The translations under genes and the position numbers were made by a program. DNA of 49,415 nt, from assembly GCA_018714855.1 (NCBI GenBank), contig DVMT01000027.1:1-49415 (forward strand). The letters run 5' to 3'. This document shows positions 16,752 to 47,911 of the stretch, in pieces (within the stretch, counting starts at the first letter, position 1; each line of letters starts with the position of its first letter). The notes below the pieces were generated by a model that saw nothing but the letters and a program-made list of their open reading frames with translations, was not told the origin of the DNA and made no database searches. Source of the DNA: Candidatus Aphodocola excrementigallinarum (GTDB lineage Bacteria; Bacillota_I; Bacilli_A; RF39; UBA660).

Positions 16752-19700
16752 TTAATCTATATCAAGGATGTCTTCTTCTTCATCTTTATTAATTGAAAAA
16801 TCGCTTATGTATTTTACAAGTACTGGTTTTCCACGGTTTATTACAAATAAGAAATCATCATCGATAGATTCTTTAATTTCAGGAGTTCTAACGGATATTT
16901 TCAAGGTGAATTGATCATTTATACCATCACCAATAAAGATTCCATCATTTGGATTAACACCATCTTTAAACCAAGATTCATACTCATATTTTTTAATCTT
17001 ATCTATACTATCTACCAAGATAAAATTAATAATTCCAAGATCTTTTGCCTTTGTAAAGAAATCATTAGCTTTTGCTTTATTATCACTTGATAATTTTGAA
17101 ATAAAGTCTTCTATACCATTAATTACTAATAAAATTGGTTTTTGATTTCTTAAAACAGATATATTATAACCATTTTGAACATATAAATTATAACAATCAA
17201 CTTGGTATTTTAATAATTTTTCAAATATTTGATTATAGTCATTTTTTTCAACCGCTAAATTTGACATTGTATTATCATTTATCTCAACCGCTTCAGAATC
17301 TATTAACATAGTTTGATAAGCAGTGTTTAATTTTAATTCATTTAATAAAGCATTAACAAAATTTGTCATTACAAAACAATCATTAGCAGTTACAATATTT
17401 ATTAAATTCTTTTTAAAGTTGTATGTAGAAACATTAAGATCCTTCTTTTCAATACCTATTATTACATCAAAACTATTTTGATCGTAACTTTCTTCTACTG
17501 ATTCATAAGTTACTTTTAAAGGAAGTACCGGTACGTGTTTAGCCTTTATATTATATTTAGAATTAGTTTCAGATATTTTAGCTTCAATCGTCTCATTTAT
17601 TTTTTCGTTTGTATCCACTGATGCTGTTTGAAATTCATAAACCGCATCTTGCTTTATTATACCTCTTCCAAATATCTTAGATGGATAGTTTTTACCTACG
17701 TTACCTAATATAGTTGAGTAATCATCATCATTGTTTTGTTGCAATGAATAAATAAGTGAGAAATTCTGTTTTAATTTAAATCTTAATCCGTTAGGTGTAT
17801 TACAAGTAATAAAGAAATATATTCCATACTTAGTACACTCTCTTGTTATAACGTTTAATGTATCTTCATATTTTTCATAAGTATCTTGATATGCTTCATA
17901 GTTATTAATTATAACAACTATACTAGGTTCTTTTTTACCACTTTTCAAATTATAATTGAAGAAATTACCACCGTAACTACTAAATAAAGATTTTCTTTTT
18001 TCCATTAAACTATTTATCATTTTATATAAATTACCTATTTTTTCTTCTTCATCAATTTGAATTACATCACCAACGTAATTAGATGTATCATATATTTTAA
18101 GTACTTCTGCACCAAAGTCTAATATATAAAAGTTTATTTCTTCCGTGCTATATAAACACATTGATGAATAAATCATGGTCATTATAAAATTTTCTTTACC
18201 AGAACCGGTAGCACCATACAAAAGCGTATTACCACGCGCGCTTATTGGTACTGTTAAAATATTTTGTTTTTGTTCTTGAGGAACATCATATTCACCTACC
18301 GGAATATCAATAATATTGGCCTTAGGTTTAAAGTTATACTTAGATATTAAATTAACGATGTTAATAAAACTAGGTATTTTATCAAGCCATAATGGTTTGC
18401 ATTTAATCTTTTGTTCTTTAGCTATATCCGCCAAATAATTAACAACGTTTGATAATTCCTCTCCGTATTTTTTCTCATCTTTATTTACTTTCTTTTCTCT
18501 TGTTGCAACGTTTTTAATAACTTGTCCAACATTATTAATAAAATTAATCGCGGTATCTATAGGTTTTTTAGTCTTTTCTTTTGGAACATATTTTCCTCCT
18601 GCCCAAGCAGCTTGTCCTAAAGTAAACACTTCATTATAACCAACCTGAAAGTAAAACCTACCAGTTTGTTTTAAATAAGCAGCATCAGGACATTTAATAA
18701 CCTCGTTTGAATCACTTTTATCTTGAACTCTTAGACATACCCTAAACCTTGTGTTTGACCAAATCTGAGGATCAACAACACCACTTGGTTTTTGAGTTGC
18801 AAGTATTAAGTGAACACCAAGTGAACGACCTATACGAGCGGTAGAAATAAGTTGTTCCATAAATTCTGGTTGCTGTGTTTTAAGTTCAGCAAACTCATCA
18901 CTTATAATAAACAAATGTGATACCGGTTCATCTACTTTCTTTTCTCTATATAACCTTTGATATTTATATATATCAACCGTTGATTCACCAGTTTTATCCC
19001 TTGCGATGTTAAATAATCTTTGTCTTCTTTTTAATTCACTTTCAATAGAAGATAAACTTCTTTTTATCTCACTTGCATCAAGGTTCGTTATCGTACCTAC
19101 TAAGTGAGGTAATTTTTTACCAGAATTAGCATTTTCAAAAGCACCAGCAAGTCCTCCACCTTTGTAGTCAATTAATATAAATTGTACTTCATACGGATTA
19201 TAGTTAACCGCTAAAGACAAAATATAAGTAATGATAAATTCTGATTTACCAGAACCTGTCATACCTGCGACAAGCCCATGCGGACCATGTGCTTTTTCAT
19301 GTAAATCAATGTACTGAATTTCATTATTCTTTCCATAACCAACCGGAGTTGAAAGCGACTCCATAGGATTGCTTTTTTGCCATCTGTTAAGTGAGTTTAA
19401 CTGCTGTACTTTACCTACGTCATACATCTCTAAAAAGCCTACTTTATCTGGTATTTTAGCAACTGAGTTATTAGCGGTTTCAATAGGAATATTAGATAAT
19501 ACTTTGTAGCATTCATTATAATTAATGCCACTTATTAAGTCTATTATAAACTTTTGGTTTTCCTCATTTATAACGTTCTTAGAAAGCTCACCTGATGCAG
19601 CATCAACGGTTATAAAACTCTTACATTGTTCTGGAAGCGTTGATATGTTTCCATTTGAAATTAACAAACTAAAACCATAATTTACTTTTGACTCAAGTAA

Positions 19701-21410
19701 ATCATTAATAAAATCCTGACTTCTTACCATCTTAAAAGAATCAGTTATAACAAGATAAATCTTATCAAATGAATGAGGATTTAAATCCCTTTGGTTTGAC
19801 GCTTCTTTTCTCGCGTTAAATATCTTTTCTAGATATGAACAAACTATGTTATATTCCTCACTTTTAGAAGCAAATAAACGAATCGTTTTATCATCGTCAA
19901 AACAGTGTGGTAAATTCTTTATGTTTTCCCAAGTGTTTTTCTTATCATTATCAGTTAAAATAACTATTTTCAAATCTATATAACTATGGAAAGTTATTAT
20001 CTGAAACAAAAGTTTCTTCAAATAATCACTTCTATTATCATACTGACCAATTATAGAAGATATATAATTATCCATAAAAGAATATACAACAGGAACGTTT
20101 TTTAGTATCTTTGGCTCACGACTTAACTTATCCGCAACATCTTTAAGTTCATCTTCAACCATAGAAAATGACTCTTCAGGATAAGTTATTTTAAGCTTCA
20201 TAGGATAACTCCCAAAACCTAAACTGACTTTTAAAAAGTCTTCATCTTCTATTCTTTTTTGCCATAATACCGTTTCTTTATCAAGTATTATTTTGTTACA
20301 AGTAAGTAAATTAGGATAATTACGATTTAAAATATCAGTTTGATTATTTAATTCATCAATAATTTGCTTTCTTTTACCCTCAATATACTTAGTGTATTTA
20401 TCTATTCTTTCCTGTTCTTTTTTCTTTCTTCTTTTATTTTCAAACTTTCTTGTAATGGTTGGCCATAAAAGCGTCGATGCAACCATTGCAATAGACATAA
20501 CTATAGAAGGAAGTGCAGAAAGCATAGATGAATTACCACTTCTTAAATTTGCAATCGAAGTAAATGCCATAACCATTGATGACATACTCATAGTAAGCAT
20601 TGGTCCAACAGTTAAAATAACTGGCATATCTTGCTCTGGTTCTTTAGCAGGTGGAGCATCTATTTTTATTTCCTTTTCATTTAATTCAGATACAAAGCGG
20701 GGTGTTTTATGAAAATAATCATCATCTTTATACCACTTCATATCAATGTCTTCATCAGCTTCATTAAAACTATCTTCCACGTTATCATAATTAACCGTTG
20801 TAAGACCATTTACCATTAAACTATTACCATAATAATAAATGTTTAACTTAGCATTATACTGATACTTCATATAAACTATCTTTAAACCATTTATAAAGAT
20901 AACGTCTCCATACTCTAAAGCCTTTTTATCAAAAACCCTTAAATTATTTACATAAACACCATACCTATTAGAAGTAGCATATAAAAAATATTTACCGTTT
21001 TCAAAGACTAACTTTGCCTGATTCTGATCTAATCTATTAAATACAACGTTATTGTTGTTAGTACTACCGATAGATATAACAGGAGTTTGATTGGGATTAA
21101 CATAATAATCCACCATCTTATCATCATAAGAAGGAGCAACATAAATTAACATAGATTCATTAGTAGACGCATTTCTAACAGTATAAAAAGAGTATTCCTT
21201 TAAATCAAAAGCCGCTATATAATCATTATTAAAAACACAATAAAACTCCTGATTACTAATAAGCCTCCAAAGCCCATTTTCCTCAGTTATATTAAGTAAA
21301 TTAACCTCTTTACCAGCATCATCATAATCAGTAACCCAAAAGTTACCAGATGGCTCATCTGGTATATTTATACTTCTTATTCTATCCCTTTTTATTAATG
21401 AAACCCGCAT
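16752..21410 (-). CDS. essC: Type VII secretion protein EssC (FHA-like N-terminus, FtsK/SpoIIIE ATPase domains)
   Basis: 1552 aa; FHA-like start, TM pair ([23 protein letters not shown]...), [38 protein letters not shown], second P-loop [18 protein letters not shown], degenerate third domain. Confidence 0.95.
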   Translation of the reverse strand: [1552 protein letters not shown]

Positions 21411-21425
21411 TTTTACTCCTCCGTT

Positions 21426-21737
21426 TTACTTGACTTGATCATTTATATTAGTAAATTCAAAATTTCCTTTAAATAATTCATAATCCGTTAATTTATCATA
21501 TAGTTTAAAGGCTTCATCATCTGTAAAACCAATATCACTTATATATGCCGAAAAATTAGCTGATAAGTTACTCATTTTTTCGTTATATTCTTTATAACCA
21601 TTACCATCCCAATGTTCATTTTTATCTAAATCATTCACAATATTCTTAATATTATTAATACACGTTAACAACTCATTAGAAAAATAATTAAAGTAATCAT
21701 AAAGTTCTAATATTGTATTATAATCCATCTGTTGCAT
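21426..21737 (-). CDS. WXG100-like small protein
   Basis: 103 aa helical; EHWDGNGYKEYNEKMSNL, just upstream of essC. Confidence 0.6.
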   Translation of the reverse strand: MQQMDYNTILELYDYFNYFSNELLTCINNIKNIVNDLDKNEHWDGNGYKEYNEKMSNLSANFSAYISDIGFTDDEAFKLYDKLTDYELFKGNFEFTNINDQVK

Positions 21738-21748
21738 AACTAATCACC

Positions 21749-22033
21749 TCAATCCGTTATAGGTTTATCATATGATTCTTTTAAAGCATCATATATGTCA
21801 TAAACTTTACTCAAAAAAGTATAATAATTATTAAGTTCACTTTCATATTTTTTTAAATCAACCAAAACATCATCATATTTTTTTAAAAAACTAGTCGCAT
21901 CATCACCTTGCCAACTTTGATTAACTACATCTAAATAAAGCTTGATTAGATTTATATTATCACTGATTTTATCTATGTTTTCTTTTATTGATGTAGCATC
22001 TTGGTTTAACTTATCAGATACAGCTATCTTCAC
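21749..22033 (-). CDS. WXG100 family protein
   Basis: VNQSWQGDDATSFLKKYDDVL. Likely start is the GTG after GGGAGGTTAGTA rather than the track start at 22051. Confidence 0.75.
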   Translation of the reverse strand: MKIAVSDKLNQDATSIKENIDKISDNINLIKLYLDVVNQSWQGDDATSFLKKYDDVLVDLKKYESELNNYYTFLSKVYDIYDALKESYDKPITD

Positions 22034-22110
22034 ACTACTAACCTCCCTCACAAAAAAAATGTTAATTATAACATTCTTTTGTCAAAGAGTTTAATAACTC
22101 TTTTAACTAT
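22026..22110 (-). repeat. Duplicated intergenic hairpin/RBS module, copy 1
   Basis: Minus strand AAGAGTTATTAAACTCTTTGACAAAAGAATGTTATAATTAACATTTTTTTTGTGAGGGAGGTTAGTAGTGTG; matches copy at 24303-24385. Confidence 0.75.
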
Positions 22111-23651
22111 TTATTTATAATTTCTTTTACACTAACCCAATTATTTGATGAAGCATTTGTGTTATTTAAATTTATAGCAACTTGTGCTTCATTAACATCA
22201 TATTTTTCACAGAATTCTCGAAATGACATATTACTTGCAAGTTCTGCATTTGAAACATTACCATTTTCATTTATCACAGCAAAACCTCTAACATTAGGAT
22301 TATTATCAATATATTGTGAAATGATTTCATTTGCAGTTTTATTAATAGATGGCCTTTGAGTTTCAGTAGTAGTAACTTTATCATTAGAAGAATTAATTTT
22401 AACTTGTTCTGTTGCTAATTCTTCCTGATTTTCATTTAATTCATTAACGCTTATCCAAGCTTGAGAAGTACCATTTTTATCAGATACGTCAACCGCAACT
22501 CTTCCTATATCAACACCATACTTTTCGCAGTATTCTTGTAGTGATAAGCCATCCGCTCTTTCAATATTGGATACCGTACCATCTTCATTTACTATAGCAA
22601 AACTTTTAAATTTTGAATTATCACTATTAACATATTTATTAATTAAATTACGTGTATCTCTTGCATTAACTGCATCAGCTGCTGACATATGTCCTTTGCT
22701 GACATCAAAATTACCAACTGAAGAACCAATCCTTATATCTGGATATTTAACCTCTTCAACTTTTGCGTTGCTTGCTAATTCATCATCTGAAACTCTGCCA
22801 GGTACCTTTGAAACATTTAATGCAGAATTAGTTTTATCTATTAAAATAAGTTCTGGCATAGTTGACTCTTGACTAGAATAGCCTGATGGACTACCACCGT
22901 TAGCAACGTTAGTACTTGAATAAACTGCTTTTAAAACATTTATTATTTCACTCCATTTATTTAAAATTATAGAATTGTTTTCTTTCATATAATGAAAAAT
23001 TTGATTAATTACATTTTTAAGAATTACAATAACATCGTTATCACATGAATATATATAACCGCTTTCAAACTCATCTATATATTTTGATTGTAATTCACGT
23101 GATAAATCCTCAAAATCATTATAATAGTTTTCGATTTTATCAATATTATAAATCCTATTATCTGTTGAAGAAGATGATAAAGAACCAGGATTTCCTTTTA
23201 AAGCATATCTATTAAAGATATCTATTAATTTCTGTTTTAATTCATTTTTTTTGTTTAAGGCATTGTTATACTCTTTTTTTAAAGAAGCATGCGTACGTCT
23301 TTGATTAGCATCATCATATTGTGCAGCATAAGGAGCACTTGTTTGTAAACTATTACTATTTTCAAAATTATAAAGTGCCATCTTCTTTTCACCAGAAATT
23401 ACCGCTTGCTTTTTATATTCATCTAAATTTGGTAGTGCATCAATACAGTTTTGTAAATACACTCTAAAATCATTAATAAACATTTCTTGACTAGCAATAG
23501 CATCTACTATTACGCTTTTGGTTATGCCAGTCCAAAAAGAATCTTTTAAATTGGAATTCAAATCGAAAAGTTTGTTAAAAAATTTGTCTAATGTTAACAA
23601 GTATTCTAAATCTTCTAAAACGCTATTTTTACTTACATCCTCTAATTTCAT
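22107..23651 (-). CDS. T7SS-locus protein with helical N-terminus and two tandem homologous C-terminal domains
   Basis: 514 aa, SFWTG near the N-terminus; repeats NLINKYVNSDNSKFKSFAIVNEDGTVSNIERADGLSLQEYCEKYGVDIGRVAVDVSDKNGTSQAWISVNEL and EIISQYIDNNPNVRGFAVINENGNVSNAELASNMSFREFCEKYDVNEAQVAINLNNTNASSNNWVSVKEI. Confidence 0.7.
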   Translation of the reverse strand: MKLEDVSKNSVLEDLEYLLTLDKFFNKLFDLNSNLKDSFWTGITKSVIVDAIASQEMFINDFRVYLQNCIDALPNLDEYKKQAVISGEKKMALYNFENSNSLQTSAPYAAQYDDANQRRTHASLKKEYNNALNKKNELKQKLIDIFNRYALKGNPGSLSSSSTDNRIYNIDKIENYYNDFEDLSRELQSKYIDEFESGYIYSCDNDVIVILKNVINQIFHYMKENNSIILNKWSEIINVLKAVYSSTNVANGGSPSGYSSQESTMPELILIDKTNSALNVSKVPGRVSDDELASNAKVEEVKYPDIRIGSSVGNFDVSKGHMSAADAVNARDTRNLINKYVNSDNSKFKSFAIVNEDGTVSNIERADGLSLQEYCEKYGVDIGRVAVDVSDKNGTSQAWISVNELNENQEELATEQVKINSSNDKVTTTETQRPSINKTANEIISQYIDNNPNVRGFAVINENGNVSNAELASNMSFREFCEKYDVNEAQVAINLNNTNASSNNWVSVKEIINK

Positions 23652-23674
23652 AAGACACCTCCATTATGTTAATT

Positions 23675-24004
23675 TTATAAATTATTATTGTTGTTAGACC
23701 AAGTAGTAACTTGATTATAATTATCTATAAAGTTATTCATTTTTTTATCCGTAGTTTTATAATTATCAGCAGCTGTCTTAAGATTGTTAATACAAGGCTC
23801 TAAATATACATTAATTATATCTTCAAACAAATCACAATTCTTCTTTAAATTATCACAGAAATAATCATTTGACCCATCAAATATGTTTTTTACTTTTTTT
23901 CTTACTTGTTTTATTCCATCCATGTCATCTAAAATTTGCTTTTTTAAGTTTTTAGTTTCTTCATAAAGTTCATTTACCTGTTCATAATTAATTTCAGTTT
24001 GCAT
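23675..24004 (-). CDS. WXG100/LXG-partner-like small helical protein
   Basis: 109 aa helical protein in the T7SS operon, VKNIFDGSNDYFCDNLKK (W of WXG replaced). Confidence 0.5.
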   Translation of the reverse strand: MQTEINYEQVNELYEETKNLKKQILDDMDGIKQVRKKVKNIFDGSNDYFCDNLKKNCDLFEDIINVYLEPCINNLKTAADNYKTTDKKMNNFIDNYNQVTTWSNNNNNL

Positions 24005-24014
24005 AAAAATCCTC

Positions 24015-24305
24015 CTAACGAGTTATATTAAGCCTAGTTCCTAATTTTTCTTCGATTTGTTTAAAAATAATATCGTAATGTGATAAATAATAATGATAAA
24101 GTAACATAACATTATAAAAAGTATCAATGTAAGGATAACATCTATTAAACGCATTTAACACACTTGTTGCATCATCACCTTTCCACACAGATGATAAAGA
24201 ATCAAATCTTTCTTTTAATTGATTTGTTTTTGAATGAATGCTTTCAATGCGTTCCTTCATTTGTGCACTTAATTGTATAAATTCACTATCAGATATTAGC
24301 TTCAT
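24015..24305 (-). CDS. WXG100 family protein
   Basis: SLSSVWKGDDATSVLNAFNRC; likely start ATG (MKLISDSEF) after GGGAGGTTAGTAGT. Confidence 0.7.
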   Translation of the reverse strand: MKLISDSEFIQLSAQMKERIESIHSKTNQLKERFDSLSSVWKGDDATSVLNAFNRCYPYIDTFYNVMLLYHYYLSHYDIIFKQIEEKLGTRLNITR

Positions 24306-24385
24306 ACTACTAACCTCCCTCACAAAAGAATGTTAAAATTAGCATTCTTTTGTCAAAAAGTTTAATTATTAAACTCTTATTTTTG
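24303..24385 (-). repeat. Duplicated intergenic hairpin/RBS module, copy 2
   Basis: Minus strand AAGAGTTTAATAATTAAACTTTTTGACAAAAGAATGCTAATTTTAACATTCTTTTGTGAGGGAGGTTAGTAGTATG. Confidence 0.75.
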
Positions 24386-24667
24386 ACCTGATACTGCTCT
24401 ATCAACTGCTTGATATCTAGCAACTGTATTCTTAAGATATGTAGAACAATCAGTTATAGCTTCATAGAATTCATGAAATTTTGCAGCCAAAGTATTAAAT
24501 TCCGCTTTAGCTTGTTCAGCAGCGTCTCCACTCCATACTCCATCAGTTCCTACCTTATCCATTTCAGGCTTAATAGATTCTTCTAATAAAGATTGCATAG
24601 AACTAGCTTTTTGTCCTAACTGATCTGCTATACTACTTATTTCTGTATAAGATAATCCTGAGAACAT
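24377..24667 (-). CDS. WXG100 family (EsxA-like) protein
   Basis: 96 aa, TDGVWSGDAAEQAKAEFNTLAAKFHEFYEAI. Confidence 0.88.
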   Translation of the reverse strand: MFSGLSYTEISSIADQLGQKASSMQSLLEESIKPEMDKVGTDGVWSGDAAEQAKAEFNTLAAKFHEFYEAITDCSTYLKNTVARYQAVDRAVSGQK

Positions 24668-24677
24668 TTTATCCCTC

Positions 24678-24965
24678 CTACTTTATTGTGTTTTCTTCCA
24701 TTGCTTTTTGGTATGCGTTACCTACTTGGATTAAATATGATCCAACTTCATCAATTGTTTGTTGCAACTTATTCATTACTTGTGCTTGTTCTGTTATTTC
24801 ACTAGTATATTTTGTTGCATCATCACCTTGCCAACTTCTTTTCAAACTATCATTAAGATTTTGAATTTCACCTAATAACTTTTTGAAATCTCCAGCATAG
24901 TTTTGAATAGCAGTTCCAGTTTGTCTTGTTTTTTCATAATCAATGTTTAAACTAGTCATTGCCAT
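24678..24965 (-). CDS. WXG100 family (Esx) protein
   Basis: 95 aa, SLKRSWQGDDATKYTSEI. Confidence 0.9.
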   Translation of the reverse strand: MAMTSLNIDYEKTRQTGTAIQNYAGDFKKLLGEIQNLNDSLKRSWQGDDATKYTSEITEQAQVMNKLQQTIDEVGSYLIQVGNAYQKAMEENTIK

Positions 24966-24979
24966 AACCTTTCACCTCC

Positions 24980-25228
24980 TTATACCATCATTATTCGTGC
25001 CCCGTTTTTTATTCCGCTGTCTTTGACGTATACGTTGTTTGAATATTCCATGCCAGTGTCTATATCAAAAAAAAGATACGTTTTTTCCTTAAGTATTCCT
25101 CCAGATAATTCATGGATACTTTTTATAACGTACTTCTTTATGGTACCCATTTTCTTATTAATAGGTATAAACAAATCAAAATTTTGTTCTATAGACGGAA
25201 CTTCAATTGAAATAAGTAACTTATTCAT
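24980..25228 (-). CDS. YukD/EsaB-like ubiquitin-fold T7SS accessory protein
   Basis: 82 aa: KLLISIEVPSIEQNFDLFIPINKKMGTIKKYVIKSIHELSG...NGARIMMV, first gene of the operon. Confidence 0.85.
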   Translation of the reverse strand: MNKLLISIEVPSIEQNFDLFIPINKKMGTIKKYVIKSIHELSGGILKEKTYLFFDIDTGMEYSNNVYVKDSGIKNGARIMMV

Positions 25229-39995: not shown

Positions 39996-41021
39996 TTACT
40001 TGTTTATTTCAAAATTTATTTTTTCCTCTTCAATAGCGGTAATCAATTCTTTTTCTGTCGGCATATGTAATTTGTATTCTGACGAAAATATTGTTTTATT
40101 ATCCTCTGGTAGCGTATATTTTACAACTGTTTCATTTTTGTTTGTTGATAATAATATTCCTACCGTTGGATTTTCATCTTCTTGTTTAATCTTTCTATCA
40201 TAGTAATTTACATACATTTGCATCTGCCCAATATCATGATGAGTTACTTTTCCTATTTTTAAATCAATTATAACAAAGCATCTTAAAAGTCTGTTATAGA
40301 AAACTAAATCAGGATAAAAGTGATCTTCTTCTAATGTTAATCTAACTTGATTACCTACATAACTAAAACCCTTTCCTAGTTCTAATAAAAATTCTTTTAA
40401 ATGTTCTAAAATATTTTTTTCTAAATCAGATTCTAGATAATTTGTATTCTCTTTTATATCTAAAAATTCCAAAACAAATGAATCTTTAACTAGATCTTTA
40501 TTTGTCTTTAAAATTTGCCCTTTTTCAGATAGTTCCAATACTTTTTCTTTATCAGCAGATAATGATAGTCTTTCGTATAATAAAGAATCTCTTTGTCTTT
40601 GAAGTTCTCTTACACTCCATCTAGAGTTTATACATTCATTTATATAGAATTTTCTTTTGGGTACATCTTCTATTTTTATTATTTCAATATAATGAGACCA
40701 ACTTAATTGCGACGACACTGTTGTTGCATTTGGAAAATAAATATAAAATTTTCTCATTCTTTCTAAATTTCTTTTAGAAAAACCTTTACCAAATTCATTA
40801 GTTAATTTTTGAGATAATTTATCAAGTACAGCATCACCATAGTTGGCTCTTTCATCACCCTGTTGTATTTCCATAATTGCTTTTCCAATGTTCCAATATA
40901 AATTAAGCATTTCAGTATTTACGACACTATACACTTTATTTCTACTACTAATAACTAATTTCTTAATATTATCAAATATATTATTAATTTTATTATCATT
41001 TTTAAATAATTGATTATTCAT
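39996..41021 (-). CDS. DUF1016 / YhcG-like PD-(D/E)XK nuclease domain protein
   Basis: VYSVVNTEMLNLYWNIGKAIMEIQQGDERANYGDAVLDKLSQKLTNEFGKGFSKRNLERMRKFY...FYPDLVFYNRLLRCFVIIDLKIGKVTHHDIGQMQMYVNYYDR. Confidence 0.93.
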   Translation of the reverse strand: MNNQLFKNDNKINNIFDNIKKLVISSRNKVYSVVNTEMLNLYWNIGKAIMEIQQGDERANYGDAVLDKLSQKLTNEFGKGFSKRNLERMRKFYIYFPNATTVSSQLSWSHYIEIIKIEDVPKRKFYINECINSRWSVRELQRQRDSLLYERLSLSADKEKVLELSEKGQILKTNKDLVKDSFVLEFLDIKENTNYLESDLEKNILEHLKEFLLELGKGFSYVGNQVRLTLEEDHFYPDLVFYNRLLRCFVIIDLKIGKVTHHDIGQMQMYVNYYDRKIKQEDENPTVGILLSTNKNETVVKYTLPEDNKTIFSSEYKLHMPTEKELITAIEEEKINFEINK

Positions 41022-41329: not shown

Positions 41330-42001
41330 CTATTTAAGATAATTATTCAAATAATTTATCCATTCTGGAGCATTTTCTTCTTGAAATAAATGATAAAGAA
41401 AATCAACAACAATTTGATGTCTACTCTTTGCTTCTTTTTTACCTGATGTCGTTAACATTAAATTTTTAAGTTTCAAAATTTTTTCAAATATGTGGCACAC
41501 ACTACTATCAGCGCATTTTCTCGTATATTTTTCAGCTGTCATATCTTCTATTGGAAATGCATCTTTATTGAAAAAAGGTTTTCCGTTTTTCATACTATAT
41601 TTATAAACTCGTAAAATGCCATTAGCACCTAAAGCATCACACATATCTGCATCAGATACAATTTTACCTTCAAGAGTTGTTAGGCAACAACCTTTTAATC
41701 TCTTACTATATCCTATATTATTAAGAGCAAGACATACTTGTTCTTGTATATTTTTATTTACATTACAATCTTCCATAATATTTTTTGCATTTGTTAAATT
41801 CTCAGCATTATCCATACCAAATAATTTATAATCATCAACATCATGGAGTAATGCTATCAAAGAAACAATATCTTTGTTAGCGTTTTCTTTTTCTGCAAAT
41901 TTTAAAGATAGTTCTAAAACTCTATTTATATGATCCATTCCGTGTCCAGAATTATCTTCATTTAATAATTCACTTACTTGTTTTTTTACTTTTTGTATCA
42001 T
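41330..42001 (-). CDS. HD domain hydrolase
   Basis: GHGMDHINRVLELSLKFAEKENANKDIVSLIALLHDVDDYK...KIVSDADMCDALGANGI. Confidence 0.88.
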   Translation of the reverse strand: MIQKVKKQVSELLNEDNSGHGMDHINRVLELSLKFAEKENANKDIVSLIALLHDVDDYKLFGMDNAENLTNAKNIMEDCNVNKNIQEQVCLALNNIGYSKRLKGCCLTTLEGKIVSDADMCDALGANGILRVYKYSMKNGKPFFNKDAFPIEDMTAEKYTRKCADSSVCHIFEKILKLKNLMLTTSGKKEAKSRHQIVVDFLYHLFQEENAPEWINYLNNYLK

Positions 42002-42786
42002 TATTTAATCTCCTTAAACCCATTTCTACTCCATAACCAAAGCGGTGTATGAATATCGATTGGTTTATAATTTGTATTTTTAAATAATTCTTGCCATCTA
42101 TCTATTACAATTTGCTGAACATTGCTAGAATTAAATTCATTATCTGTAATTAATCCTAATTTATGAGTGGCTTTACATACATGGGTATCTGGAGCAACAG
42201 TCAAATTTTCTATATTTTTATACTTTCTATCAGTATATTGATAAATTACATACAGCCAATAATTACATATTTTAGTTCCTGATAAATACGGAAATTTCTT
42301 TTTATTATCCTTTTGTATAAAACGTCTTATTTTATCCACATCATTATCCAAACTGTCAAATAATTTTCTTATGTCTCCATCAAATAATTCTATAAAAGTA
42401 TTGCAAAGTGTCAACCATATTTCAGTTTGCTTTTGTTTTTGTAACGCAACTTTATATTTTATTAAAGCATGCTGAACTTCTTCAAAAGGCTTTTCTAAAC
42501 ACAACTTAGGATCAAATACAAATCTAGTTTCTTCATCAGTATAGGTTTTTAACGCACTTTCCCAAAGTATATAAGAATTTCTTTGATAATTTAGTGCCAT
42601 TGGCAAAGTGAAATATAAATAATTTTCTAAACTAGATTTTTCAAAATGCGGATTTACATCTTCAGGCATTACTTCGCCACCAAGTTCTCCATTTTTATAC
42701 ATTACAATGAGTTTATCAACTTTATCTAATATTTCTTTTTTGTTCGTGACTACATCCACTTGCAAATTAACATAAATAGTTAACAA
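42001..42786 (-). CDS. HhH-DNA-glycosylase-like protein of unknown specificity
   Basis: KKFPYLSGTKICNYWLYVIYQY...LTVAPDTHVCKATHKLGLI aligns by eye with the EndoIII-type LPGVGRKTANVVL...VDTHVxRvsnRLGL; stop overlaps the next start (TAATG). Confidence 0.5.
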   Translation of the reverse strand: MLTIYVNLQVDVVTNKKEILDKVDKLIVMYKNGELGGEVMPEDVNPHFEKSSLENYLYFTLPMALNYQRNSYILWESALKTYTDEETRFVFDPKLCLEKPFEEVQHALIKYKVALQKQKQTEIWLTLCNTFIELFDGDIRKLFDSLDNDVDKIRRFIQKDNKKKFPYLSGTKICNYWLYVIYQYTDRKYKNIENLTVAPDTHVCKATHKLGLITDNEFNSSNVQQIVIDRWQELFKNTNYKPIDIHTPLWLWSRNGFKEIK

Positions 42787-42793
42787 GTAACAA

Positions 42794-43348
42794 TTATAAG
42801 TATTTTAATAATTCAGGAAACTCTGTATATCCACTTTCAGAATTTAAATGACCACCACCTGAAATCATAACCTGATTTTCAGTTATAGTATCTGCAAATT
42901 CTTTTTCTGCTTCATATTTTACATAAGGATCATTATCAGAGTAAAAACATACAATGTCATTACAATATTTTTTTACATCCGAAAGATTATCAAAATACAT
43001 ACTTTCATTAACTGCATCATAATCTTTATCTATTCCAAAATAATTGTTAAAGCCACAAACTAAAACTAATCTTTTAACTTTAATCTTATTTTCAACTATG
43101 AATTTACATATAAAGATAGGCGCTATTGAATGAGCAAATATAATTGTATTTTCGTTTATAATATTTGCTTCAACATAAGTCTTTAAAAGTTTAGACCAAT
43201 TTTCATAACTTTGATAACCAACTCCTGTTGGAAAGTCTGGAGTATAAATTTCTAAATCTTTGCTTTCTATTTCTTTTCTTAGATACGGAATCCAATTAGA
43301 AAATGGACTTCCAAAACTTCCATGGACTAATAAATGATTATTTTTCAC
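42794..43348 (-). CDS. RBBP9/YdeN-family alpha/beta hydrolase
   Basis: NHLLVHGSFGSPFSNWIPYLRKEIESKDLEIYTPDFPTG...TIIFAHSIAPIFICKFIVE; GGGHLNSESGYTEFPELL. Confidence 0.82.
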   Translation of the reverse strand: MKNNHLLVHGSFGSPFSNWIPYLRKEIESKDLEIYTPDFPTGVGYQSYENWSKLLKTYVEANIINENTIIFAHSIAPIFICKFIVENKIKVKRLVLVCGFNNYFGIDKDYDAVNESMYFDNLSDVKKYCNDIVCFYSDNDPYVKYEAEKEFADTITENQVMISGGGHLNSESGYTEFPELLKYL

Positions 43349-44213
43349 TTTCTAACTCCTCCTCAATAAATCTTAAAATATCATTTTTAATTAAATCAAT
43401 ATTATCGTAATAAATTATATCTTTAACTTTTCCACATCCTTTAACAAGCCCCGATATTTTACTTCCGGTTTTTGCAATAATTATTATAGGAATACTTAAC
43501 TTAACCGCTTCTTGCAATTCCATTCCTTGCCCTGTAGATACATTACTCATTTCTGCTATAACAATATCCGTATCTTTTAAAAGATTCATTGCCCTTTCAT
43601 ATCTCTCATAATCATTCCCCGTAAATTTCATTGTATCTAATGGGCTGTAAATTTCAATAGGTATATTTTTTGAATCTATTTCTCTTATTATAGAATCTAA
43701 TTTTACATAAATATTTTTTGAAGATTCATCTGATGCTAAAACAGCTCCTGTTATTAAAATTCTATTTTTAATTTTATCTTTATGTTCTTTTAATGCTTCA
43801 ATAGCTTTATCTCTATGTAGTTCTTTTACTATTTCTATTTTATTCTTAGAGTATTTTACCAATTCATCTATATTAGTAATCATTTCCGGGCAATAGTTAT
43901 CATTGCTATCTTGCAAAGTAGCAGCATAAACCACTTTTGAAAATTCCTCATACAATATCGCTCCCATACACATCATACAAGGCTCACAAGATACATACAT
44001 TATTGCTCCTTTTAAATCACCATAAAGATTTTTGTTTTTGGAAGCGCTTTCTATTGCTTCTAATTCAGCATGAGAATACATACTTGTTTCCATTAAAGTT
44101 TTATCATCACTTCTACCAATTATTTTTCCATCTTTAACAACTATAGCTCCATAAGGATATTTAGCATTTTTGCTAATTTCTATCGCTATAGCAATATATT
44201 GTTCATCAGTCAT
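43338..44213 (-). CDS. Zn-dependent nucleotide/base deaminase fused to nucleoside 2-deoxyribosyltransferase/DNPH1-like domain
   Basis: Deaminase motifs SHAELEAIE and SCEPCMMCMG; C-terminal NRILITGAVLA...DTDIVIAEMSNVSTGQGMELQEAVKLSIPIIII. Start refined to MTDEQY at 44213 (AGGAGG RBS). Confidence 0.82.
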   Translation of the reverse strand: MTDEQYIAIAIEISKNAKYPYGAIVVKDGKIIGRSDDKTLMETSMYSHAELEAIESASKNKNLYGDLKGAIMYVSCEPCMMCMGAILYEEFSKVVYAATLQDSNDNYCPEMITNIDELVKYSKNKIEIVKELHRDKAIEALKEHKDKIKNRILITGAVLASDESSKNIYVKLDSIIREIDSKNIPIEIYSPLDTMKFTGNDYERYERAMNLLKDTDIVIAEMSNVSTGQGMELQEAVKLSIPIIIIAKTGSKISGLVKGCGKVKDIIYYDNIDLIKNDILRFIEEELESEK

Positions 44214-44223
44214 TATATACCTC

Positions 44224-44724
44224 CTATAATTTTTTACCATAATAGTCAACATCAATAACAGTTCCATCAGGATATCTCTCGGAAGATGATTTTATAAATT
44301 CATTAAAACCATAATGTTCATAAATTTGTTTATTTTTTTCTTCTTTCGGCTCAACTCCTAAAGTAACTTTTGTAAAACCTCTTTTTTTCAAATCATCAAG
44401 CATGAATTTAAATAACTTAGAAAAGTACCCCTTACCTTGATATTCTTCTTTAGTTCTAAAAGCGGTTAAATATACTGTCTTATCGTCTACTAAATCTTGA
44501 TAATTCTGAACTTTATTTGGATTTAACATTGCAGTGGCCTCACAAATAATATTTTCATCTAATATACCATAATATGGAATACTATAACCATTTTTAGCAT
44601 TTAAGATTGCTTCTTTTTTCCATATAATCCAATTATTTTTATCACTTTTACTATTTTCAATTTCATAATCCCATTTTACATTCATTTCTTCTATCGATGG
44701 TATCTTACATACAAAATTATTCAT
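44224..44724 (-). CDS. GNAT family N-acetyltransferase
   Basis: LTAFRTKEEYQGKGYFSKLFKFMLDDLKKRGFTKVTLGVEPKEEKNKQIYEHYGFNEF. Confidence 0.88.
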   Translation of the reverse strand: MNNFVCKIPSIEEMNVKWDYEIENSKSDKNNWIIWKKEAILNAKNGYSIPYYGILDENIICEATAMLNPNKVQNYQDLVDDKTVYLTAFRTKEEYQGKGYFSKLFKFMLDDLKKRGFTKVTLGVEPKEEKNKQIYEHYGFNEFIKSSSERYPDGTVIDVDYYGKKL

Positions 44725-45040: not shown

Positions 45041-46102
45041 TTATTTATAAGGTTTAAAATCAAAGTCAAATCCCGTATATTTAGATGACTTAAAGTTTAG
45101 AAAATCATCTATATCCATTTTGGCAGATTCTGATATTTCATTTATTCTTTTTACACCAGCATTATCCATTACTAAAGGAATGATGTATCTTCTTTTTGGA
45201 TCAACACTTATACAATATTTATCAGTAACTAAAGTATCACTTTTATATACGTCGGTAGAATTCTGAAATTTTAAAAAATTATTTCTAATATATTTATCGT
45301 CACAATTTTTTATTTTTTCTATTATTTCTTTTTCTTTTAAATTATATAAATCATCAACCGTTAAATATCCTTTAACATTCATAGATTTTACAATGTCCGC
45401 TAAAAACTGCATACAAGTTTTATCTTTATCTTGAATCCATGCAGGCCATAACTTTGATACCGTATGGATGTACTTTTCACAAACATCTTTATGTTTAAAT
45501 CCTAATTCATCTATTTTATCTTCATTTTTTAAAATTACAACATCATTATATACCTTTTTTATTTCATCTAAACTCCATACTCTAAAAAACGTTAATCCTG
45601 ATGAAAAATTATATTCAAATCTATCTGCCGATAACTTTGGTGTATCATTATCTGCAATTGGATAAATTTTATAATCACAAACCTCTTCTAACTTTATGTT
45701 ATCTCGTTTTAACAGCTTCATTATTTTTTTAGAATTTTTTATTATATCAACGGTTCTTTCCTCGGTTGATTCTTGTTTTTTATAATCACCATTCATAAAG
45801 TCTATACAATGTTTAAATGCAGGAGTTGCAATATCGTGAAATAATCCCGCTAAAGCCTGTTTTTTATCGTGCGTAAAATGCCATATGATAAGTGCAACCG
45901 CAACACTATGGTCAAGGTTAGAATACCAATATTTAACATCAAAACATTTAGTATAATCAAGCCCACAACTTAAGCTAATGCCACTTAATCTTTTCATTTC
46001 TGGTGTATCAATGTAATCTAGCATCCATTTTGGAAACTCCGGTGATAAAATTTTAAAATATGCCTTTACTTCGTTATTTAAACTTTCTAAATATCCATTC
46101 AT
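45041..46102 (-). CDS. HD domain (dNTPase-like) phosphohydrolase
   Basis: RLSGISLSCGLDYTKCF...YWYSNLDHSVAVALIIWHFTHDKKQALAGLFHDIATPAFKHCIDFMNGDYKKQESTEERT. Confidence 0.82.
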   Translation of the reverse strand: MNGYLESLNNEVKAYFKILSPEFPKWMLDYIDTPEMKRLSGISLSCGLDYTKCFDVKYWYSNLDHSVAVALIIWHFTHDKKQALAGLFHDIATPAFKHCIDFMNGDYKKQESTEERTVDIIKNSKKIMKLLKRDNIKLEEVCDYKIYPIADNDTPKLSADRFEYNFSSGLTFFRVWSLDEIKKVYNDVVILKNEDKIDELGFKHKDVCEKYIHTVSKLWPAWIQDKDKTCMQFLADIVKSMNVKGYLTVDDLYNLKEKEIIEKIKNCDDKYIRNNFLKFQNSTDVYKSDTLVTDKYCISVDPKRRYIIPLVMDNAGVKRINEISESAKMDIDDFLNFKSSKYTGFDFDFKPYK

Positions 46103-46969: not shown

Positions 46970-47911
46970 TTATAAATTTATATTCCACTTAGGAGGATAT
47001 ACGTACTGTATTTTACTTTCTTTTGGCTTATATTTTTTCTTAATTTTAGTTCTGTTAGATTTTAAATTAGGCATCTTTTGTCTTAGATATTTATCTAATT
47101 CACAAAAAATATTTTGGCAATCTATTAATTGTAATGGTCTATTACCTATCCTTTTAAAATCTAAATTAAATCTTTTAAACTCTTTATCTTGGTTTTCATA
47201 CATGTATTTAATTATATCCTCGTTTGTCATTTTACCTTTATCTATAAAACATTTTTTTATACCTCTAAGTGATCCGGGACCCGCAATAGTAAACTCATCT
47301 TCCCTCCAGTTCACAACATCACTATAATTTATATCAGTTACTAATTGATAAGCCATGAAATTACCAATTAAAGGATAACTTTTTATTATGTTAAATGCCT
47401 CTTGCATAGTTTTGCATTTTAGTATTTTATGTTGCATTTTATCTTCTATAAACATTTTATTAAGAAGGGCTAAATGATTATCATGCTTTCTATCATATCC
47501 AAAAGCTTTATTAGCACAACTTATATAAGCATCATTATATATTTTAACTCCGTTTGAAATAGCATCTTCTAATACTTTAGAATGCTTTTTCATACTAAAC
47601 GTTTTTAAAGTAACATCACCAAAATTATTTAATAATAATTCCCAAGTAGATTCTTTATTAAATAACTTAAATAAAATTATTCTAAAAATAATATCTTCAT
47701 TAGAATATTTTTTACCATTATATATAACGTTTCTTAATAAATACTGACTTACTCTATCATTTACCCGGTAACTGTTACAAAATTTGTATTCTTGTAAAAT
47801 TTCATCATTGGTCCAAGGCGGCTTTTCACCGTTTAGTTTTTTCCAAAATATATTTTGTCTTTCACATGCAAAATACCAATATAAATCATATACTTCTTGT
47901 CTTTTTTTCAT
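46970..47911 (-). CDS. Nucleotide kinase/5-hmdU DNA kinase helical domain (HMUDK_hel) / aGPT-PPlase-like DNA base hypermodification family protein
   Basis: YDLYWYFACERQNIFWKKLNGEKPPWTNDEILQEYKFCNSYRVNDRVSQYLLRNVIYNG...IKSYPLIGNFMAYQLVTDINYSDVVNWREDEFTIAGPGSLRGIKKCF...GNRPLQLIDCQNIFCELDKYLR. Confidence 0.82.
   Translation of the reverse strand: MKKRQEVYDLYWYFACERQNIFWKKLNGEKPPWTNDEILQEYKFCNSYRVNDRVSQYLLRNVIYNGKKYSNEDIIFRIILFKLFNKESTWELLLNNFGDVTLKTFSMKKHSKVLEDAISNGVKIYNDAYISCANKAFGYDRKHDNHLALLNKMFIEDKMQHKILKCKTMQEAFNIIKSYPLIGNFMAYQLVTDINYSDVVNWREDEFTIAGPGSLRGIKKCFIDKGKMTNEDIIKYMYENQDKEFKRFNLDFKRIGNRPLQLIDCQNIFCELDKYLRQKMPNLKSNRTKIKKKYKPKESKIQYVYPPKWNINL

What the first reader, a model, noticed from the sequence alone, without database searches (positions are those of the whole stretch)
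43338..44213. Deaminase-DNPH1/NDT-like fusion in one polypeptide
The N-terminal half has HAE and PCMMC zinc-deaminase motifs. The C-terminal half has the DxVIAExSxxSxGxGxEL pattern of RCL/DNPH1 and nucleoside 2-deoxyribosyltransferases. In mammals DCTD and DNPH1 act in sequence on 5-hydroxymethyl-dCMP and hmdUMP; a fusion would couple deamination with N-glycosidic cleavage.
Basis: partly seen in the sequence, partly recalled or inferred. Interest (0 to 1): 0.72.

Follow-up and report, generated by a model that had tools for sequence, protein, structure and literature searches.

The report
Deaminase fused to altered DNPH1-like domain
A gut bacterium carries one protein that joins an intact zinc deaminase to a relative of the human nucleotide-cleaning enzyme DNPH1; the joining is real and under selection, but the DNPH1-like half lacks two of that enzyme's three catalytic residues, so the proposed 5-hydroxymethyl-dUMP pathway is not supported and its true substrate is open.

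Summary
Window 43338-44213 (-) encodes one 291-aa protein: residues 1-145 are a zinc deaminase (PF00383, E 1e-17, Zn ligands and Glu50 intact) and about 149-291 have the DNPH1/RCL fold (Foldseek E 2e-7). The fusion is not an accident. Six other public genomes carry it intact, at 65-84% identity, in two bacterial classes, and both halves are under purifying selection (dN/dS 0.08 and 0.13).

Of the DNPH1 catalytic triad (Tyr24, Asp80, Glu104) only the Glu nucleophile remains (Glu232). Asp80 is Ala208, Tyr24 is Leu153, and the E55/H56 motif is replaced by an invariant SPLDT-KF-G motif. The best PDB match is the D80A mutant. The two DNPH1 phosphate-binding serines (Ser226, Ser254) are invariant, so a 5'-phosphorylated ligand is likely. 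In the deaminase, the Asn shared by guanine, guanosine and TadA deaminases is Asp37.

The NDT lineage also occurs alone and fused to MazG; the deaminase also occurs alone and fused to an inositol-phosphatase-like domain. My best reading is a nucleotide house-cleaning enzyme: a deaminase joined to a divergent nucleotide N-glycosidase-like domain of unknown substrate. It is a new variant of known families.

The parts
43338..44213 (-). Deaminase-NDT fusion gene, 291 aa, ATG at 44213 preceded by AGGAGG
   Evidence: intact relatives
43779..44213 (-). Deaminase half (residues 1-145): Zn ligands H48, C79, C82; general base E50; Asp37 in place of the Asn of GuaD/GSDA/TadA
   Evidence: PF00383 E 1.2e-17; alignments to 1tiy and 7dbf
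43341..43769 (-). DNPH1/NDT-fold half (residues 149-291): nucleophile Glu232 kept; phosphate serines Ser226 and Ser254 kept; Asp80 equivalent is Ala208; Tyr24 equivalent is Leu153; SPLDT-KF-G motif 190-199
42794..43348 (-). RBBP9/YdeN-like serine hydrolase; its GTG start lies inside the 3' end of the fusion gene with GAGGAGG upstream; fused to the NDT half in the relative G092/L061
   Evidence: PF06821 E 1e-18; 1uxo YdeN E 5e-9; neighbour survey
44224..44724 (-). GNAT acetyltransferase, stop 10 bases upstream of the fusion start
   Evidence: PF00583 E 5e-9
42001..42786 (-). 261-aa protein of unknown kind, weak AGOG DNA-glycosylase-like match; next gene in the apparent operon
   Evidence: PF09171 E 0.015, below cut-off; nothing in PDB
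41330..42001 (-). HD-domain hydrolase, overlaps the previous gene by one base
   Evidence: PF01966 E 1e-5

Best explanation
The gene makes a two-domain nucleotide or nucleobase house-cleaning enzyme. The N-terminal half is a working zinc-dependent hydrolytic deaminase (inferred from the intact Zn site and base, and from selection) of the GuaD/GSDA/TadA-like group with an altered base-anchoring residue, so its substrate is probably not plain guanine. The C-terminal half has the DNPH1 fold and, by inference, binds a nucleoside 5'-monophosphate through Ser226 and Ser254 (one of them acting across a dimer), with Glu232 attacking C1' to break the N-glycosidic bond. It does so without the Tyr/Asp pair of DNPH1, so either another group protonates the leaving base (the invariant SPLDT-KF-G segment is the candidate) or the substrate is a damaged or charged base that leaves without an acid. 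The two halves act in one clean-up or salvage process but also persist when separated. Shown: the architecture, fold, residue identities, conservation and selection. Inferred: both catalytic activities, the phosphate ligand and the shared pathway.
For: One ORF, conserved fusion in seven intact copies including the window. dN/dS of 0.08 and 0.13 in the two halves, window versus L060. Deaminase Zn site and base invariant. DNPH1 fold, Foldseek E 2.2e-7. Equivalents of DNPH1 S98, S128 and E104 invariant in 14 of 14. The same NDT lineage is fused to MazG right after a Ham1 gene in L063, follows a NTPase_I-T gene in L071, and lies next to NUDIX genes in L068/L069 and L099. Those enzymes make NMPs from NTPs, the type of substrate the serine pair would bind.
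Against: DNPH1 needs Asp80 and Tyr24 and both are gone, so glycosidase activity may be lost. Standalone forms of both domains exist, and the deaminase swaps partners, so coupling is not obligatory. NUDIX genes are common in these genomes (4 to 23 copies), which makes that neighbourhood evidence weak. The full-length model has low confidence (pLDDT 63), so nothing is known of how the halves pack.
Confidence: 0.42

Rival explanations
1. The C-terminal half no longer cuts glycosidic bonds. It is a nucleotide-binding or dimerisation domain that senses a nucleotide and tunes the deaminase.
For: Tyr24 and Asp80 equivalents are lost and the best structural match is the D80A mutant; the phosphate-binding serines are invariant.
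Against: The nucleophile Glu232 is invariant in 14 of 14 and the domain occurs alone (L071, L072, L081-L083) and with MazG (L063), where there is no deaminase to regulate.
Confidence: 0.25
2. The fusion is a product of gene shuffling in islands of small metabolic enzymes. The two halves do separate jobs and share only a promoter and a linker.
For: Deaminase alone in three relatives at 85-88% identity, fused to an inositol-phosphatase-like domain in L007, fused copy degraded and joined to a hydrolase in G092; fused rows are not one clade in the deaminase tree.
Against: The same order and linker are kept across two classes at about 65-68% identity with purifying selection.
Confidence: 0.2
3. One reading: a DCTD-DNPH1 analogue that deaminates hmdCMP and cleaves hmdUMP.
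For: Same two superfamilies; a PF18723 5-hmdU-kinase-like gene lies 2.8 kb upstream.
Against: [quoted passage not shown] deaminase nearer to GuaD/GSDA/TadA than to dCMP deaminase; PF18723 absent from the 13 other genomes tested with the lineage.
Confidence: 0.06
4. The C-terminal half acts on pyridine nucleotides (NMN, NaMN or NAD), whose base leaves as a neutral group and needs no general acid, as in TIR NADases.
For: Glu kept and acid lost; the standalone copies in L071 and L072 sit beside NadD-like and NadE genes.
Against: No NadD/NadE neighbours seen in the flanks of the fused copies read here or of L098-L100; it does not explain the deaminase partner.
Confidence: 0.07

Closest known systems
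DNPH1/RCL (5-hydroxymethyl-dUMP N-hydrolase)
   Same: Fold, Glu nucleophile (E104/E232), two phosphate-binding serines (S98/S226, S128/S254), AE-x-S-x-x-S-x-G-x-G-x-E motif
   Different: Asp80 is Ala208, Tyr24 is Leu153, Arg30 is Leu159, LTEHV replaced by SPLDT-KF-G, fused to a deaminase
MilB/BlsM CMP N-glycosidases
   Same: NDT-superfamily nucleotide hydrolases; MilB also lacks the Tyr (F17), linked to ribose rather than deoxyribose substrates (PMC10603095)
   Different: MilB binds phosphate with R23, absent here (L159); only 14% identity in the structural match
Guanine deaminase GuaD and guanosine deaminase GSDA
   Same: Zn ligands, general base, SCEPC-x-x-C motif; best PDB matches (1tiy, 7dbf)
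   Different: Base-anchoring Asn (GuaD N42, GSDA N69) is Asp37; the chain runs into the NDT half instead of ending in a capping tail
COG3236 (YbiA-type) N-glycosidase fused to riboflavin enzymes
   Same: Precedent for an N-glycosidase joined to enzymes of a vitamin pathway as a damage-control part (table in PMC4921024; its link to RibD-type deaminases is from memory)
   Different: Unrelated glycosidase fold and pathway
Anti-phage dCTP deaminase
   Same: Deaminase domain of the same superfamily (NF041025 E 1e-5)
   Different: Scores 24.6 against a cut-off of 400; lacks its N-terminal half

Membership tests
DNPH1 | DNPH1 fold | tested here: met
   Foldseek E 2.2e-7, TM 0.64-0.83 across the listed DNPH1 chains
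DNPH1 | Nucleophile Glu104 | tested here: met
   E232, invariant in 14 of 14
DNPH1 | Phosphate ligands Ser98 and Ser128 | tested here: met
   S226 and S254, invariant in 14 of 14
DNPH1 | General acid Asp80 | tested here: not met
   A208; Ala or Val throughout the lineage
DNPH1 | Tyr24 of the catalytic triad | tested here: not met
   L153; Leu or Met in relatives
DNPH1 | Base-recognition R30 and the LTEHV motif with E55/H56 | tested here: not met
   L159 at R30; SPLDT-KF-G in place of LTEHV
DNPH1 | Hydrolysis of hmdUMP | not testable with these tools
   needs an assay
Nucleoside 2-deoxyribosyltransferase (PF05014) | Score above the Pfam gathering threshold | tested here: not met
   16.0 bits against 28.8
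dCMP/cytidine deaminase superfamily (PF00383) | Curated Pfam score and HAE / PC-x-x-C zinc site | tested here: met
   64.1 bits against 25; H48, E50, C79, C82
dCMP deaminase (ComEB/DCTD) | NCBIfam ComEB equivalog score | tested here: not met
   18.7 bits against 219
Guanine/guanosine deaminase | Base-anchoring Asn (GuaD N42, GSDA N69) | tested here: not met
   D37, invariant in the seven fusions of A3
Guanine/guanosine deaminase | C-terminal tail with capping Tyr | tested here: inconclusive
   The chain continues into the second domain; the full model is too weak to place it
tRNA adenosine deaminase TadA | NCBIfam equivalog score | tested here: not met
   50.1 bits against 150

The most novel reading that the evidence does not exclude
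A lineage of DNPH1-fold enzymes that naturally carries the human inactivating-type change D80A together with loss of Tyr24, yet still cleaves nucleotides through a re-built acid site or on bases that leave unaided, and that was joined to a deaminase to form a two-step nucleotide clean-up enzyme.
Probability: 0.27. Interest if true: 0.6.

Novelty: new variant of a known kind. Interest (0 to 1): 0.4.

Why it matters
DNPH1 is a drug target in PARP-inhibitor therapy, and its mechanism rests on a Tyr/Asp/Glu triad. A selected natural lineage with only the Glu shows which parts of that active site can be replaced, and offers ready test proteins. The fusions with a deaminase and with MazG give a concrete lead to an uncharacterised nucleotide clean-up step in gut Bacilli and Clostridia.

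Tried and rejected
Viral contigs held no relative, plasmids none, and phages only the deaminase half at under 50% identity, so a phage origin is not supported. PADLOC gave only weak partial hits to the fusion, so anti-phage defence is not supported. A link to 5-hmdU DNA metabolism through the PF18723 neighbour was tested and failed. The NUDIX neighbourhood was checked against copy number and downgraded. The phylum-level sample was too biased to close relatives to be useful. Papers on a deaminase-deoxyribosyltransferase fusion were searched for with none found in the library.

Full report
What is there. The ORF at 43338-44213 (-) is real, with ATG at 44213 behind AGGAGG and a stop at 43338-43340, giving 291 aa. 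The source genome is a 1.18 Mb, 94% complete assembly. Relatives of the gene carry titles such as uncultured Bacilli, Tenericutes, Clostridia and Eubacteriales.

Deaminase half. Residues 2-97 match PF00383 (E 1.2e-17). The best solved relatives are B. subtilis guanine deaminase (1tiy), Arabidopsis guanosine deaminase (7dbf) and TadA. Zn ligands H48, C79, C82 and base E50 are intact and invariant in the seven fusions; the neighbouring Pro78 is Ser in two. In ungapped alignment the Asn that GuaD, GSDA and TadA share (GSDA N69, a key substrate-anchoring residue according to PMC9739398) is Asp37 here. That argues for a different or modified substrate. Scores against TadA, RibD, ComEB and the anti-phage dCTP deaminase are all far below their cut-offs.

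DNPH1-like half. By sequence alone it is marginal (PF05014 16.0 bits against a 28.8 cut-off), but a 14-sequence profile finds Rcl at E 3e-7 and a predicted structure of pLDDT 77 matches DNPH1 at E 2.2e-7. Human DNPH1 works with a triad Y24/D80/E104, with S98 and S128' on the phosphate, R30 and H56 on the base and E55 on the water (PMC10603095). In this lineage E104 is E232, S98 is S226 and S128 is S254, all invariant in 14 of 14. D80 is A208 (Ala or Val in all members), Y24 is L153 (Leu or Met), R30 is L159, and LTEHV is replaced by SPLDT-KF-G. A profile-profile alignment with DNPH1-like proteins of the same bacterial family places A208 on their Asp (that set of seven sequences included one fragment). 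The best PDB matches by profile and by fold are the D69A-type rat chain and the human D80A mutant (that 2klh is a D69A chain is read from the residue in the printed alignment). So the phosphate site and nucleophile are kept, while base recognition and acid catalysis are changed.

Is the fusion real and selected? The genome-contig scan found 13 loci of the NDT lineage. Six are intact deaminase-NDT fusions (L060, L066, L067, L068, L069, L070). L061 is the same record as G092: a short deletion breaks its N-terminus and the NDT half runs on into the neighbouring hydrolase. L062 is cut by the contig end. L063 is a MazG-NDT fusion, L064 a methyltransferase joined to a deaminase remnant and NDT, L065 has most of the deaminase deleted, and L071 and L072 are standalone, as are L081-L083 from a related family. 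Between the window and L060, dN/dS is 0.083 (deaminase) and 0.131 (NDT). In the window's family only about 4 of 388 genomes carry the lineage in more than a fragment.

Domain history. Close deaminase relatives (85-88%) stand alone in G038, G029 and G115, and one (78%) is fused to an inositol-phosphatase-like domain in G015. In the deaminase tree the fused rows are not a single clade (at least four changes on the best tree, most inner branches weak, one origin not ruled out), so standalone forms appear to be nested among fused ones. Both halves therefore survive without each other, which is the main argument against obligatory coupling.

Neighbourhood. The fusion lies between a GNAT gene (10-base gap) and a YdeN/RBBP9-like hydrolase whose start overlaps its 3' end. 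That hydrolase has one to four copies per genome, yet is adjacent to, fused with, or about 1 kb from the NDT lineage in the window, G092, G233, G760 and G765; the five are partly related, so this is not five independent events. MazG plus Ham1 (L063), NTPase_I-T (L071) and NUDIX genes (L068/L069, L099) lie beside the lineage, but NUDIX genes number 4 to 23 per genome, so I give this moderate to low weight. The nearby PF18723 gene has no counterpart in 13 other carrier genomes.

Conclusion. It works most like a nucleotide house-cleaning enzyme with a deaminase and an NMP-binding N-glycosidase-like half, but it is not a DNPH1 by the residue tests and not a demonstrated dCMP or guanine deaminase. 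Activities, substrates and coupling are inferred and need the assays listed.

Noticed in passing
window 46970-47911 (-): PF18723 5-hmdU DNA kinase helical-domain protein (E 2.8e-106); found in 6 of 59 genomes of the family, in none of 13 other carriers of the NDT lineage.
   Followed up: yes
window 42001-42786 (-): Uncharacterised 261-aa protein with a weak AGOG DNA-glycosylase-like match (E 0.015), next to the hydrolase in the apparent operon.
   Followed up: partly
window 16752-25228 (-): Looks like a type VIIb secretion locus: large FtsK/EssC-like ATPase, several WXG100-like proteins of about 100 aa and a YukD-like protein (read, not searched).
   Followed up: no
window 39996-41021 (-): DUF1016/YhcG PDDEXK nuclease matching the PADLOC candidate defence family PDC-S02 (E 1.5e-137).
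   Followed up: no
window 45041-46102 (-) and L060:4995-6026: HD-type protein of 353 aa with a relative directly downstream of the fusion region in L060; no PDB match.
   Followed up: partly
L063:3638-4411: MazG domain fused to the same NDT lineage, directly after a Ham1-family gene.
   Followed up: partly
L007:1501-2703: Same deaminase lineage (78%) fused to an inositol-monophosphatase-family domain.
   Followed up: partly
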